Shown piece after piece: positions 22,942 through 27,366 of a stretch of 64,000 bases of DNA. Made by a program: the position numbers and the translations under genes. The DNA lies in contig DASVDK010000177.1 in the NCBI GenBank assembly GCA_036381125.1, positions 1 through 64,000 of the forward strand. The letters are read 5' to 3'. Within the stretch, counting starts at the first letter, position 1. Every line of letters starts with the position of its first letter. Origin of the DNA: DASVDK01 sp036381125 [NCBI: Thermodesulfobacteriota bacterium] (lineage in GTDB: Bacteria > DASVDK01). The notes beneath the pieces are model-generated. The model was not told the DNA's origin, searched no databases, and saw only the letters and a list, made by a program, of their open reading frames with translations.

Positions 22942-23748
22942 ATGGTCGAACTCTGTCGCCGCATCGCCGAACATCCGGCGTTCCAGCACGTGATCCTGGT
23001 GGTCATCCTCGTCAACGCCGTCGTGATCGGCTTCGAGACGTCGCCCGCGGTCATGGCCCGGTGGGGCGGGTTCCTGCTCGGGCTCGGCACGGCGATCCAG
23101 GCGCTCTTCGTCGTGGAGATCCTCGTTCGCCTCGTCGCCTACTGGCCGCGGCTCGGCCGCTTCTTCACCGACGGCTGGAACGTCTTCGACTTCCTCGTCG
23201 TCGCGATCTCGCTCGCGCCGCAGGCCGGCCCGTTCTCGACCGTGGTCAGGCTCGCGCGGGTGCTGCGCGTCGCGCGCCTGCTGTCGGTGGTGCCGGAGCT
23301 GCGGCTCATCATCGGCACGATGCTCCGCTCGATCCCCTCCATGGGGCACGTGATCGCGCTCCTGTCGCTCCTCCTGTACATCTACGCCGTCGTCGGCTTC
23401 TACCTCTTCGGCCGTCACGACCCGTCCCACTGGGGTTCGCTCTCGCAGGCCTTCCTCACTCTCTTCCAGATGCTCACGCTCGAGGGGTGGGTGGAGATCC
23501 AGGCGACCAGCATGGAGGCGGTGCCGCTCGCCTGGATCTACTACGCGAGCTTCGTCGTGGTCGCGGTCTTCGTCGTGATCAACCTGTTCATCGCGGTCGT
23601 CCTCAACAACCTCGAGCGGGCGAAGGACGAGGAGCAGGCGGAAGCCGACCGCAAGAGCCCGCAGGGCGCGCTCATCGAGCAGGTCGAGCGGCTCAAGGCC
23701 GAGCTCGCGCGGCTCGAGCGGGACCTGAGGGCGTCGGGGAGGTCCTGA
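22942..23748 (+). CDS. voltage-gated-type ion channel (ion transporter family)
   Basis: 268 aa. A single six-helix channel domain: S1 HVILVVILVNAVVIGFET, S4 with spaced arginines (TVVRLARVLRVARLLSV), pore region FLTLFQMLTLEGWVEI, and S6 ending in NLFIAVVLNNLE. The TLEGW selectivity segment is of the bacterial sodium-channel (NaChBac/NavMs) type. A charged C-terminal tail (IEQVERLKAELARLERDL) is a likely coiled coil for tetramer assembly. Confidence 0.85.
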   Translation: MVELCRRIAEHPAFQHVILVVILVNAVVIGFETSPAVMARWGGFLLGLGTAIQALFVVEILVRLVAYWPRLGRFFTDGWNVFDFLVVAISLAPQAGPFSTVVRLARVLRVARLLSVVPELRLIIGTMLRSIPSMGHVIALLSLLLYIYAVVGFYLFGRHDPSHWGSLSQAFLTLFQMLTLEGWVEIQATSMEAVPLAWIYYASFVVVAVFVVINLFIAVVLNNLERAKDEEQAEADRKSPQGALIEQVERLKAELARLERDLRASGRS

Positions 23749-24633: not shown

Positions 24634-25221
24634 CTACCCGGCCTGGAGGAGCCGCACGGCCCGCCCTTCTCGTGCGATCCGCCCCTCGGCCTCGAGCGCG
24701 GCGAGGGTCCGGTAGAGCGCTTCGTGCGTGAGGCCGATCTCGGCCGCGACCTGCTTGAGCGGACGATCGCCGCCGATCGCGCCGCGCGGGGCCAGGGCGA
24801 GGTACTGGAGGACGCGCGCCCGCGCCGATCGGACGTTGCGCAGCTCGAGGCGCGCACGGAGCACCTGGATCTGCGCCGCCATCTGCCGCATGAAGCCTTC
24901 GGCGACCTCCGGGTCCGCGCGCAGGGCGCGCCTCACGGCCGCCCGGGGCAGCACCGCGACGCGCGAGGGGACCTCGGCCACGGCGTCGCAGTGGTAGCGG
25001 TCGGAGAAGAGCGCCGCCTCGGCGAACGTCTCGCCCGGGCGAGCCACGTGCACCGTCACGCCGACCCCCTCGCTCGTGTGCCGGACGAGCAGCACCCGCC
25101 CCGCCTCGACCACGAAGATCGCGGTCGTCGCGTACCCCTGTCGGAAGAGGGCTTCTCCGGCCGCGAGGTCGCGCCGCCGCGCGGAGTCGAGGAGCGCGGC
25201 GAAGGGGTCGGCCGCCGTCAT
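24634..25221 (-). CDS. Crp/Fnr-family transcriptional regulator
   Basis: 195 aa. Residues ~8-115 form a cyclic-nucleotide-binding-type beta-roll (GEALFRQGYATTAIFVVEAGRV, GETFAEAALF), then a long dimer helix and a winged helix-turn-helix (LKQVAAEIGLTHEALYRTLAALEAEGRI). No iron-sulfur cysteines, so not a true FNR; the Dnr/ArcR-like subgroups are possible. The ATG overlaps the stop of the upstream AALDC-like gene (ATGA), so the two are one operon, and an FNR-type palindrome sits before the operon. Confidence 0.85.
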   Translation of the reverse strand: MTAADPFAALLDSARRRDLAAGEALFRQGYATTAIFVVEAGRVLLVRHTSEGVGVTVHVARPGETFAEAALFSDRYHCDAVAEVPSRVAVLPRAAVRRALRADPEVAEGFMRQMAAQIQVLRARLELRNVRSARARVLQYLALAPRGAIGGDRPLKQVAAEIGLTHEALYRTLAALEAEGRIAREGRAVRLLQAG

Positions 25222-25994
25222 GCGGCCGGCAGGGACAGGACGGCGCCGCGGGCCACGCCGAAGGCGTCGAGGTGACCGGTCACCGTCCGCCCGGGGTCGA
25301 GCAGGTGGACGTGGATCCGCTCGCCCGGGTGGCTGATGACCCCCTCGAGCGCCGCGCCGGAATGGAAGCCCACCAGGTCGGCCGCCATCCGATCGCCCCG
25401 CCGGACGACCCGGGCCGCGGCGGCGTGCCTGCCGCGACCGCCGTGCCCACCTCGGCCGCCGTGCCCGCCGCCCGGCGGCTCGCCGGGACCGGCCAGCACG
25501 TGCCAGGCGTAGCCGGTGACGACGCCCCGCACGAGGAAGGGGAAGGGGCGGGAAACGTCGATGCCGCGGCGCCCCGCCGTCGCGGCGACCGCCGCCTCGA
25601 GCGCGGGCATGGAGGCGAGGTCGGCCTCGACCGGCTCCGCCGTCCAGCGGTCCACCCGGGCGGTCACGAGGAGGGCCGCCTCGGCGTCGCGAGGCGCCGG
25701 CACGATCCTGCCGTCGGCTCGCCGACCGTAGCTCACGAAGAGGCGGCTCCCCTCCGCGGTCACCTCGCCCTCGAGGCCCGCCAGGGCGCCGACGGCGTAG
25801 ACGCCGGGCGCGGCGACCGCATCGGCGAGCCTCACCCGCCCGGCGACGGCGCCGTCGCGCATCATCCGCTCGAAGTGGCCGTAGACGCGGATGTCGAAGG
25901 GCAGGTCGTCGGCGGCGCGGGCGAGGCGGGGCGGCGCCGCGAGGCTGCCGGCGGCCACGGCGAGGAGCGTGCGGCGAGTGAGCCGAGCGCGCAT
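25218..25994 (-). CDS. exported alpha-acetolactate decarboxylase-like protein with Gly/His-rich insert
   Basis: 258 aa. Export signal with twin Arg (TRRTLLAVAAGSLAAPPRLARA). The body follows the acetolactate decarboxylase pattern: YGHFERMMRDGAVAG, GALAGLEGEV, and near the C-terminus His228-x-His230 ...His241 (HVHLL...GHL) with the same HxH-x10-H spacing as the family's zinc site. Residues ~165-190 are a Gly/His/Arg-rich insert (GGGHGGRGGHGGRGRH) that I do not know in characterised enzymes. Known AALDCs make acetoin from acetolactate in the cytoplasm or secreted form. The function here is inferred. Confidence 0.7.
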   Translation of the reverse strand: MRARLTRRTLLAVAAGSLAAPPRLARAADDLPFDIRVYGHFERMMRDGAVAGRVRLADAVAAPGVYAVGALAGLEGEVTAEGSRLFVSYGRRADGRIVPAPRDAEAALLVTARVDRWTAEPVEADLASMPALEAAVAATAGRRGIDVSRPFPFLVRGVVTGYAWHVLAGPGEPPGGGHGGRGGHGGRGRHAAAARVVRRGDRMAADLVGFHSGAALEGVISHPGERIHVHLLDPGRTVTGHLDAFGVARGAVLSLPAA

Positions 25995-26051
25995 GGGGTA
26001 TCCTCCCGGTGCGGGTCCGCCGGCCACTCTGCCGCGGGCCGTCCGGCTCGC

Positions 26052-26069
26052 ATATGATCCGGATCATAT
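26052..26069. promoter_or_regulatory. 18-bp perfect palindrome of FNR/Dnr type upstream of the AALDC-like/crp operon
   Basis: ATATGATCCGGATCATAT is fully self-complementary. Its core ATGAT-N4-ATCAT differs from the FNR consensus TTGAT-N4-ATCAA only at the outermost bases. It lies 58 bp before the AALDC-like start and is the likely autoregulatory site of the co-transcribed Crp/Fnr protein. Confidence 0.65.
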
Positions 26070-26084
26070 CATCCGGCGGAGGTC

Positions 26085-26396
26085 GGCGCGGCCAGCGCCC
26101 TGGGAGTGGACGTGTCCGAGCGGATGCTGGCGCGTGCGAAGGCGGAGACCCGGGACGCGGCGATCTCGTATATCAGGGCCGACCTGGAGGGCCTTCTGGG
26201 CAGGGTCCACGCGGCGCTTGCGCCCGGCGGCCATCTGCTCTTCTCGGTCGAGCACCCGATCGTTACCGCGCCCACCGATCCAGGCTGGTCGGTCGATGCC
26301 GCGAGACGCGCGGCGTGGCCCGTCCGCGGGTACCCCGACGAGGGCCCCCGTCGCACGGATTGGCTCGTGGCGTGCCGCTGTTCGACCTACCGGTAG
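26085..26396 (+). pseudogene. remnant of a SAM-dependent methyltransferase
   Basis: The frame reads AASALGVDVSERMLARAKAETRD and later RVHAALAPGGHLLFSVEHPI and DEGPRRTDWL, all typical of a class I methyltransferase. The N-terminal SAM motif I is missing, about 25 residues between RADLE and GLL (the usual motif around the active-site loop) are deleted, and the C-terminus is cut. No start codon context. It is a decayed gene. Confidence 0.7.
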
Positions 26397-27184
26397 CCGG
26401 TCGCGTCCGCCGGTCTGCCGGCCTCCTGAACCTCCCGGATGTAGCGCCAGCAGTCCGGTTGCGATCCGTCGAGGTCGGTGAAGCCGTAGACCTTCGCGAG
26501 CCCGCCGCTCGAGAGCGACTGTCCCGTCCAGCGGGCCTTCTGCGGGTCGGCGGCGAGCGCGGCGACGGCGCGTCCGACGAAGCGCGGGGACTCGGAGATC
26601 ACGAAGTGGGGCGACCTGGCCGTGGCGTCGCGCCAGTTCTCCTCGGTGACGCCGTAGGTGTCGAGCATCATCTCGGAGCGCATCCACCCCGGCGTGATCG
26701 ACACCGCCGTGGCGCCGTGGCGCGCGAGGTCCCTGGCGTGCGCCCAGGCCATCCGTATGGCGGCGACCTTGGCGAGGTCGTAGAAGACCGACAGGCGGTA
26801 GTGGTCCGCGTTGTACTCCGCCGTGCCGCCGGTCACCTCGACCATGAGGCCGCCGGGGTTCGCGATTCGAACAGGCGTTCGCCGCCCCAGATGTCGTTCA
26901 CCAGGACGTCGAGCCGTCCCGTTCCGTCCGGATTCGCGCGACCAGCGCTTCGACCTCGCTCGGGACGAGATGGTCGACGCGAACCGCGATGCCCTCGCCG
27001 CCGGCCCCGGTGACCAACGCCGCGGTCTCCTCGATGGTCTCGGGACGGCCGTACTCCGACATCTGGCTTCGGGTGGTGCGGCCGGTCACGTAGACCGTGG
27101 CGCCTGCCGCGCCGAGCTCGATCGCGATTCCGCGCCCCGCGTCGCGCCGGCGACGAGCGCCACCTTTCCCTCGAGCGATCGCAT
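26387..27184 (-). pseudogene. broken short-chain dehydrogenase/reductase gene
   Basis: Four pieces in shifting frames reconstruct an SDR: MRSLEGKVALVAGATRG (27184 downward), then GRGIAIELGAAGATVYVTGRT, then LDVLVNDIWGGERLFE, then MVEVTGGTAEYN...YDLAKVAAIRMAWAHARDL with the YxxxK-type active site and ITPGWMRSEMM (26845-26387). At least two frameshifts (near 27135 and 26945) and a deletion of some 60-80 residues near 26865 are needed. It overlaps the methyltransferase remnant by about 10 bp at its 3' end. Confidence 0.75.
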
Positions 27185-27366
27185 CCGTTCGCCCCGATCT
27201 CGCGCGCGTGTCGCGCGCGGCCTCCGTGACCTGCCCCCCGGCTCGGACGTCTCCGGGCGCCCGGGTCTCCTGGGTGCAGGGTGGCGCCGGCGGGCCGGGC
27301 GGCCAACGCACGCGGCGCCTGCGACGGGCCCCCGCGCCGGTCGAGGACCTGACCTGGTCCCCGGAC

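What the first reader, a model, noticed from the sequence alone, without database searches (positions are those of the whole stretch)
26052..26069. FNR-type perfect palindrome upstream of an exported AALDC-like protein and its Crp/Fnr regulator
ATGAT-N4-ATCAT inside an 18-bp perfect palindrome, 58 bp before a two-gene operon (AALDC-like, Crp/Fnr). The regulator has no Fe-S cysteines, so an NO, oxygen or metabolite signal is open. A self-controlled unit with a secreted or periplasmic zinc enzyme would be unusual for acetoin pathways.
Basis: partly seen in the sequence, partly recalled or inferred. Interest (0 to 1): 0.6.

Follow-up and report, generated by a model that had tools for sequence, protein, structure and literature searches.

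The report
Switch site of a new Crp/Fnr clade
The palindrome is very probably the landing site of the gene regulator encoded next to it, one of a seemingly undescribed group of bacterial regulators that read their own DNA word and each appear to switch on one neighbouring gene for an exported, often metal- or haem-binding protein.

Summary
The palindrome is real and more than a chance palindrome. It is an instance of an operator, (T)ATGAT-N4-ATCAT(A), that accompanies one clade of Crp/Fnr regulators. The clade has Tyr where FNR has Ser212, and a near-invariant Cys in the effector domain (26 of 27 rows for each). Among 1,024 half-sites tested around 23 clade members, ATGAT-N4-ATCAT ranked first: 15 of 23 loci, against 1 of 37 around other Crp/Fnr genes. 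A -10-like hexamer lies exactly 22 bp beyond the operator core in 17 of 24 target promoters, against at most 3 of 24 at other spacings; the window fits (CAGAGT). This is class II (-41.5) activation geometry. The target differs between loci but by eye looks exported: cytochrome c'-like, Spy/heavy-metal-like, an unnamed His-rich family, or, as here, an acetolactate-decarboxylase-fold protein. The latter keeps the zinc His triad but lacks other features of true decarboxylases, so an acetoin role is doubtful. The signal is unknown; the conserved His-Cys pair is the candidate sensor. All of this is sequence inference; nothing was tested at the bench. I call it a new variant of a known kind.

The parts
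26052..26069 (.). 18-bp perfect palindrome ATATGATCCGGATCATAT; operator core ATGAT-N4-ATCAT at 26054-26067
   Evidence: read directly; same core beside other clade regulators
26026..26031 (-). -10-like hexamer CAGAGT, starting 22 bp after the operator core (A at position 2, T at position 6)
   Evidence: spacing conserved in 17 of 24 target promoters; no expression data
26019..26019 (-). predicted transcription start if the operator is centred at -41.5
   Evidence: inference from the spacing
26002..26007 (-). ribosome-binding-site-like GGGAGG
   Evidence: read directly
25218..25994 (-). exported-looking AALDC-fold protein, 258 aa; RR-containing signal-like N-terminus (judged by eye); zinc ligands His228, His230, His241 kept
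24634..25221 (-). Crp/Fnr regulator of the Tyr-Cys clade, 195 aa (RYHCDA motif; recognition helix HEALYR); ATGA overlap with the gene before it

Best explanation
The palindrome is the operator of the Crp/Fnr protein encoded two genes downstream. A dimer of that regulator reads the ATGAT half-sites; the Tyr at the position of FNR Ser212 (CRP Gly184) is the likely reason for A instead of T in the first position. When a signal switches it on, it binds centred about 41.5 bp before the transcription start and activates a class II promoter. That promoter drives the exported AALDC-fold protein and, through the overlapping gene order, the regulator itself, which gives positive feedback. Elsewhere the same regulator-operator pair serves a different exported protein next door, so it is a local switch with an exchangeable cargo. 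Shown by sequence: operator, promoter spacing, clade, AALDC fold (predicted model). Judged by eye: export-type N-termini. Inferred: binding, activation, autoregulation. Guess: the His-Cys pair in the effector domain senses a metal, a thiol-reactive compound or a haem-bound gas.
For: Exact operator at 4 of 4 AALDC-like loci of the first set that have an intact adjacent clade regulator (window, L007, L008, L013) and, with one mismatch, at a fifth (L136). No such site within 250 bp upstream of 9 full-length AALDC-like genes without an adjacent clade regulator. Half-site enumeration: 15 of 23 clade loci against 1 of 37 control loci, next unrelated half-site 3 of 23, Fisher p 1.2e-7. Fixed -10 spacing: 17 of 24 at 22 bp, at most 3 of 24 at other spacings from 14 to 31 bp; without the four promoters in which I first noticed the spacing it is 13 of 20. 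Genome scan with operator plus -10: 19 hits in 22 genomes, 12 of them at the regulator-cargo locus facing the cargo (locus positions). The clade is one branch with 100/100 support, 27 rows. Tyr 26/27 and Cys 26/27 in the clade; Ser 37/37 and Cys 0/37 at these sites in controls.
Against: No binding or expression data exist. The clade is a single branch, so Tyr and ATGAT may have come together once; their link is one event, not 23 independent ones. 8 of 23 loci had no exact site in the strict count (one of them, L062, has it at the start codon), and a further clade member that got no locus of its own (L131, fetched later) has none. Four clade rows without the His (L087, L088, L089, L131) have no exact site; L082, L085 and L086 keep His-Cys but have only one-mismatch sites; L055 has His-Cys and an exact site only some 540 bp beyond its stop. 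L056 has an exact FNR-type box (TTGAT-N4-ATCAA) upstream besides its ATGAT site. The window's -10 (CAGAGT) is weak. Two of the 23 surveyed loci (L051, L081) are loci where I had already seen the site; without them it is 13 of 21. Activation rather than repression rests on spacing alone.
Confidence: 0.8

Rival explanations
1. The regulator is a repressor: it sits on the operator, blocks the promoter, and lets go on the signal.
For: At several loci the operator overlaps the regulator's own start codon (L116, L117, L118, L121, and with one mismatch L127), where binding would block that gene.
Against: The cargo-side spacing is that of class II activation in 17 of 24 promoters. I did not look for -35 boxes. 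Repression of the divergent regulator gene and activation of the cargo can both be true.
Confidence: 0.15
2. It is an ordinary FNR/DNR-type site served by a global oxygen or NO regulator elsewhere in the genome.
For: The core resembles TTGAT-N4-ATCAA. DNR's box is TTGATnnnnATCAA (PMC1274295, passages seen). One clade locus (L056) also has an FNR-type box.
Against: ATGAT is found beside 15 of 23 clade regulators but 1 of 37 other Crp/Fnr genes, whose leading sites are TTGAC (5 of 37) and TTGAT (4 of 37). AALDC-like genes without an adjacent clade regulator lack the site (0 of 9).
Confidence: 0.07
3. The unit is a self-controlled acetoin pathway enzyme moved to the periplasm.
For: AALDC fold at Z 21.6-22.9, zinc His triad and Glu77 invariant in the family.
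Against: Far below the acetolactate decarboxylase equivalog cut-off; the active-site Arg is replaced by an invariant His165 in alignments; the C-terminal segment of true enzymes is missing; sibling loci use unrelated cargos.
Confidence: 0.1

Closest known systems
[quoted passage not shown]
   Same: Fold, cNMP-type effector domain, E-x-x-x-R recognition helix, 5-4-5 palindrome, class II spacing
   Different: Tyr for Ser at FNR position 212, ATGAT for TTGAT, no Fe-S Cys set, one conserved Cys in a YHCDA motif, apparently one local target instead of a regulon
CooA (haem CO sensor of the Crp/Fnr family; recalled)
   Same: Cys and His in the effector domain near the ligand pocket
   Different: Here His and Cys are adjacent and lie after the loop where CooA's ligands are recalled to lie; haem binding untested
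Alpha-acetolactate decarboxylase (PDB 4bt2-4bt7, 5xne, 6j3d, 1xv2)
   Same: Two-domain fold (Z 21.6-22.9), three zinc His, Glu of the GE motif
   Different: Exported-looking, His-rich linker, Arg replaced by His, C-terminal segment absent, 14-19% identity
Cytochrome c' and Spy/CpxP-like periplasmic proteins
   Same: They occupy the same cargo position beside the same regulator and operator at other loci
   Different: Unrelated in sequence to the window's cargo

Membership tests
Crp/Fnr superfamily | cNMP-type effector domain PF00027 | tested here: met
   65.6 bits, cut-off 27.5
Crp/Fnr superfamily | C-terminal Crp-type HTH | tested here: met
   HTH_Crp_2 at 21.7 bits is below its cut-off of 27, but there are nearly full-length matches to Crp/Fnr structures by sequence and fold matches to CRP, NtcA and Clr over 185-205 alignment columns in the 50 rows listed (model mean pLDDT 78.4, pTM 0.59)
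FNR proper | Fe-S cluster cysteines | tested here: not met
   One Cys in 195 aa (sequence)
FNR / DNR | TTGAT-N4-ATCAA operator | tested here: not met
   ATGAT arms in the window and no TTGAT-N4-ATCAA anywhere in it; clade enrichment is for ATGAT
FNR / DNR | Ser at FNR position 212 | tested here: not met
   Tyr170 in the window; 26 of 27 clade rows Tyr, 37 of 37 controls Ser; the FNR numbering is recalled
Tyr-Cys clade described here | Tyr and Cys diagnostic residues, ATGAT operator, exported-looking neighbour | tested here: met
Acetolactate decarboxylase (EC 4.1.1.5) | Fold | tested here: met
   Z 22.3 to 4bt3, 199 residues, rmsd 2.7
Acetolactate decarboxylase (EC 4.1.1.5) | Zinc His triad | tested here: met
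   His228, His230, His241 invariant in 12 rows and aligned with the HxH...H of solved enzymes; that these bind zinc is recalled
Acetolactate decarboxylase (EC 4.1.1.5) | Curated model cut-offs | tested here: not met
   PF03306 23.1 against 25; TIGR01252 16.8 against 180.65
Acetolactate decarboxylase (EC 4.1.1.5) | Active-site Arg (its role is recalled) | tested here: not met
   Aligned with invariant His165; alignment at low identity
Acetolactate decarboxylase (EC 4.1.1.5) | C-terminal segment that carries a further metal or substrate Glu (role recalled) | tested here: not met
   The last residues (257-258) align with residues 202-228 of the solved chains in the nine AALDC rows
Acetolactate decarboxylase (EC 4.1.1.5) | Activity on acetolactate | not testable with these tools
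   needs an assay

The most novel reading that the evidence does not exclude
The palindrome belongs to a previously undescribed class of one-component switches. It is a Crp/Fnr clade that senses an envelope-type stress (metal, reactive sulfur or a haem-bound gas) through a His-Cys pair, reads a word of its own (TATGAT-N4-ATCATA) through a Tyr outside the known specificity code, and is repeatedly re-plumbed to a different exported metal or haem protein. In many loci the operator doubles as the start or stop codon of the regulator gene.
Probability: 0.5. Interest if true: 0.7.

Novelty: new variant of a known kind. Interest (0 to 1): 0.6.

Why it matters
Crp/Fnr proteins are among the best studied bacterial regulators, and a published analysis links two recognition-helix positions (CRP 180 and 181) to bases of the site (PMC1274295, passages). 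This clade points to a further position (CRP 184, FNR 212) that goes with the first base of the half-site, which one mutant swap and a gel shift could test. It also gives several exported-looking proteins without a known role (an AALDC-fold family, a His-rich family with no Pfam or NCBIfam match in the members tested) a shared control element and hence a testable inducer.

Tried and rejected
Palindromy as evidence by itself: rejected, since 4 perfect 18-bp palindromes occur in the window and about 2 are expected.

Scans of genome contigs and viral contigs with the single protein found no relative; viral contigs with alignment A1 also none. phmmer of the window's AALDC-like protein against solved structures found nothing.

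Neighbourhood statistics for the signal: 90 proteins near 23 clade loci, of the 247 usable ORFs listed (regulators and cargos among those 247). Families recur only 2-3 times (P-type ATPase 3, Cytochrome_CBB3 3, multicopper oxidase 2, cation efflux 2, ArsP 2, DsbA 2, metallo-beta-lactamase 2, Na/H exchanger 2; the first 25 of 125 families were shown). I ran no control neighbourhoods. This leans to metal or thiol stress but proves nothing. ORFs were called by a rough script of mine.

Rows dropped. In the no-regulator AALDC-like count I left out L012 (frameshifted), L014, L016, L017 (fragments), L002/L015 (Variovorax remnant, regulator also a remnant), L132 (cut regulator, one-mismatch site, no -10) and the distant L040-L043. 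In one search I left out L114, L088, L130 and L131 because no target was identified, and kept the L045 row (distant AALDC-like gene, no adjacent clade regulator). The 24 sites there are the best within 160 bp of the start, 19 exact and 5 with one mismatch. In one search, L062 counted as a miss because its site overlaps the regulator start; it is present. The surveys listed 24 clade regulators; one of the two in G035 got no locus and is not among the 23 (fetched later as L131, no site). Controls are the 37 weaker matches that received a locus, not all weaker matches listed. Searches left out three clade genomes (G499, G017, G035).

Bare ATGAT-N4-ATCAT is not rare genome-wide: 2-32 per genome in 22 genomes. 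With the -10 it becomes specific: 19 hits, of which 12 face the cargo, 1 lies at the locus but faces the other way and 6 are elsewhere (reversed-pattern control 2 hits). 10 of the 22 genomes have no cargo-facing hit.

Literature: searches listed no paper that, by title and abstract start, deals with this operator, motif or an exported AALDC-like protein with a Crp regulator (one search found no paper at all). Only PMC1274295 was opened (passages); all others were seen as listings. The held library lacks most subscription journals, so 'undescribed' is limited to these searches.

Full report
OBSERVATION. The 18-bp palindrome is at 26052-26069 as stated. Perfect 18-bp palindromes are not rare in this 73% G+C window (4 found, about 2 expected by first-order simulation), but the ATGAT-N4-ATCAT core is (1 found, none in 60 simulations; no other copy within three mismatches of the 18-mer). 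Downstream on the minus strand lie an AALDC-like gene (25994-25218) and, overlapping it by ATGA, a Crp/Fnr gene (25221-24634).

THE CARGO PROTEIN. The 258-aa protein scores 23.1 bits against PF03306 (cut-off 25) and 16.8 against the acetolactate decarboxylase equivalog (cut-off 180.65). A model built from an alignment of 11 sequences, the window's and ten relatives (mean pLDDT 84.7), matches nine solved acetolactate decarboxylase entries at Z 21.6-22.9 over 196-200 residues. The zinc triad (His228, His230, His241) and Glu77 are invariant in 12 family members; the position of the enzymes' Arg carries an invariant His165; the C-terminal segment of the enzymes is missing. The roles of these residues in the enzymes are recalled. 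Full-length members carry signal-like N-termini by eye, in the window with an RR pair; no signal-peptide program was available. It is an exported-looking AALDC-fold protein of unknown activity. It is sparse: 6 of 399 genomes of one order, including distant forms, 1 of 385 of one class, 4 of 299 of one family. The seed genome is counted in each, and only the best few candidates per genome were scored, so these are lower bounds.

THE OPERATOR IS CONSERVED. In the first set of relatives, three loci have an intact homologous Crp gene divergent from and adjacent to the AALDC-like gene or its operon: L007, L008 and L013. All three, and the window, hold ATGAT-N4-ATCAT between or before the genes: ATGATCACGATCAT, ATGATTTTGATCAT, ATGATCTCTATCAT and ATGATCCGGATCAT. 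The arms are constant and the middle varies. A fifth, L136, has it with one mismatch, followed after 22 bp by CACACT. Nine full-length AALDC-like genes without such a regulator beside them (L001, L003-L006, L009-L011, L135) show no such site within 250 bp upstream (L001 was scanned for exact matches and palindromes only).

THE REGULATOR CLADE. A profile of five of these regulators searched in 240 genomes of one class and 250 of one order gave two separated score groups: 24 clade regulators in 23 genomes, and weaker matches. The 23 clade loci delivered score 125-310 bits (14 and 9; two of them are the L013 and L008 loci themselves), and the 37 weaker loci delivered, used as controls, score 76-94. 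A tree of 64 rows puts the 27 clade rows on one branch with 100/100 support. Two residues set the clade apart. At the position of FNR Ser212 (CRP Gly184; numbering recalled), 26 of 27 have Tyr and 37 of 37 controls have Ser. In the effector domain 26 of 27 have Cys, preceded by His in 21 of 27, where controls have Val, Ile, Leu, Ala or Met. The residue at the CRP 180 position varies within the clade (His 17, Pro 6, Arg 3, Lys 1), and four of the six loci with Pro there (L051, L057, L058, L062) have ATGAT sites, so the Tyr is the better candidate for reading the A.

TEST OF THE OPERATOR AGAINST ALL HALF-SITES. For all 1,024 half-sites with spacer 4, I counted the loci with a match within 400 bp on either side of the regulator. 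ATGAT came first with 15 of 23 clade loci, the next unrelated ones had 3, and controls had 1 of 37 (Fisher p 1.2e-7). Without the two loci where I had seen the site before (L051, L081) it is 13 of 21. Spacers 0-8 were also scanned; the only other peaks were shifted readings of the same palindrome (TATGA with spacer 6, 13 of 23; TGATC with spacer 2, 7 of 23). The controls' own leading sites were TTGAC (5 of 37) and TTGAT (4 of 37). Upstream sequence alone gave exact sites at 10 of 23 and one-mismatch sites at 2 more. Most remaining sites lie between the regulator's stop codon and a downstream gene. Against the reading: L056 also has an exact FNR-type box upstream, L088 has no site within one mismatch, and L055 has one only some 540 bp beyond its stop. 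Clade members share one ancestor, so this is conservation, not independent repetition; their median identity is 34%.

PROMOTER GEOMETRY. From the operator towards its target gene, a hexamer with A at 2 and T at 6 begins exactly 22 bp after the core in 17 of 24 promoters, against 0-3 of 24 at any other spacing from 14 to 31 bp. I had noticed this spacing first in four of them (window, L007, L008, L013; sequences); the other 20 give 13. Examples are AATACT in L007 and L008, CAAAGT in L013, TATCTT in L126 and CAGAGT in the window. This centres the operator at about -41.5, the class II position of FNR and CRP (general knowledge). In 22 genomes with clade regulators, operator plus -10 occurs 19 times, 12 of them at the regulator-cargo locus facing the cargo; the bare operator occurs 2-32 times per genome. 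The module therefore looks local.

CARGO EXCHANGE. The genes behind the operator encode proteins of different families with signal-like N-termini by eye. Cytochrome c'-like with a C-terminal CxxCH: L119, L120, L124-L128; the three of these that I searched (L119, L125, L126) give sub-threshold PF01322 matches. Spy/heavy-metal-resistance-like: L112 above the PF13801 cut-off, L122 below it, L116 and L121 grouped by eye. A His-rich family: L111, L113, L115, L117, L118 and L123, with no Pfam match at E 0.1 for the three tested (L111, L117, L123) and no NCBIfam match for the two tested (L111, L117). A multihaem cytochrome: L129. A further His-rich protein: L048. An exported-looking metallo-hydrolase (by eye) followed by the AALDC-like gene: L007. 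The AALDC-like gene itself: window, L008, L013, L136. Operators often overlap the regulator's own stop codon (sites given as 'down -4': L112, L113, L115, L122, L124, L125, L130) or its start (L116, L117, L118, L121, L127) (L124, L127 and L130 with one mismatch).

HOW IT MOST LIKELY WORKS. In the window, an activated regulator dimer would bind 26052-26069 and recruit RNA polymerase to a promoter starting near 26019. This makes the exported AALDC-fold protein and more regulator (positive feedback). At divergent loci the same bound site could repress the regulator while activating the cargo. The signal is not determined. The neighbourhoods contain P-type ATPases, multicopper oxidases, cation efflux and DsbA-type genes in small numbers, many cargos carry haem motifs or many His, and the regulator's own conserved feature is a His-Cys pair. 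Metal or thiol-reactive stress is my first guess, a haem-bound gas the second.

KNOWN OR NEW. A 2005 comparative study reports that CRP positions 180 and 181 correlate with bases of the site, and gives TTGATnnnnATCAA for DNR (PMC1274295, passages). My searches of the held library listed no paper on the ATGAT operator, the YHCDA motif or this cargo arrangement. It is a Crp/Fnr module by structure, with its own DNA word, residue signature and gene organisation: a new variant of a known kind.

Noticed in passing
window 26106-26396 and 26387-27311: Beyond the palindrome lie a truncated methyltransferase-like reading frame and a short-chain dehydrogenase that seems split over several frames; decayed genes or sequencing errors.
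   Followed up: partly
L002 3620-4144 (Variovorax WDL1 plasmid), also L015 and L017: Remnants of the AALDC-like gene; in L002 and L015 a regulator remnant lies head to head with it; in L002 a copper ATPase and a DUF411 gene are annotated beside it, and L017 has look-alike reading frames.
   Followed up: partly
L005 11601, L006 11570, L007 1986, L014 6199, L125 7595, L127 3472: An exported-looking metallo-beta-lactamase-fold hydrolase recurs near AALDC-like and cytochrome c'-like cargos; the L127 copy matches the 'quinoprotein relay system zinc metallohydrolase' models below their cut-offs, the others were grouped by eye.
   Followed up: partly
L111 4309-4935, L113 5666-6373, L115, L117, L118, L123: A His-rich exported-looking family (GQxAFxAIQEIV ... 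HHQxHH) with no Pfam match in the three and no NCBIfam match in the two tested, as cargo of the same regulator.
   Followed up: partly
L045 7509-7522: An exact ATGAT-N4-ATCAT site 37 bp before a distant AALDC-like gene with no clade regulator nearby and no -10 at the usual spacing.
   Followed up: no
L116, L117, L118, L121 and L112, L113, L115, L122: The operator contains or overlaps the start codon or the stop codon of the regulator gene.
   Followed up: partly
window 22942-23748: An ion-channel gene (PF00520, 157 bits) close to the unit, on the other strand.
   Followed up: no
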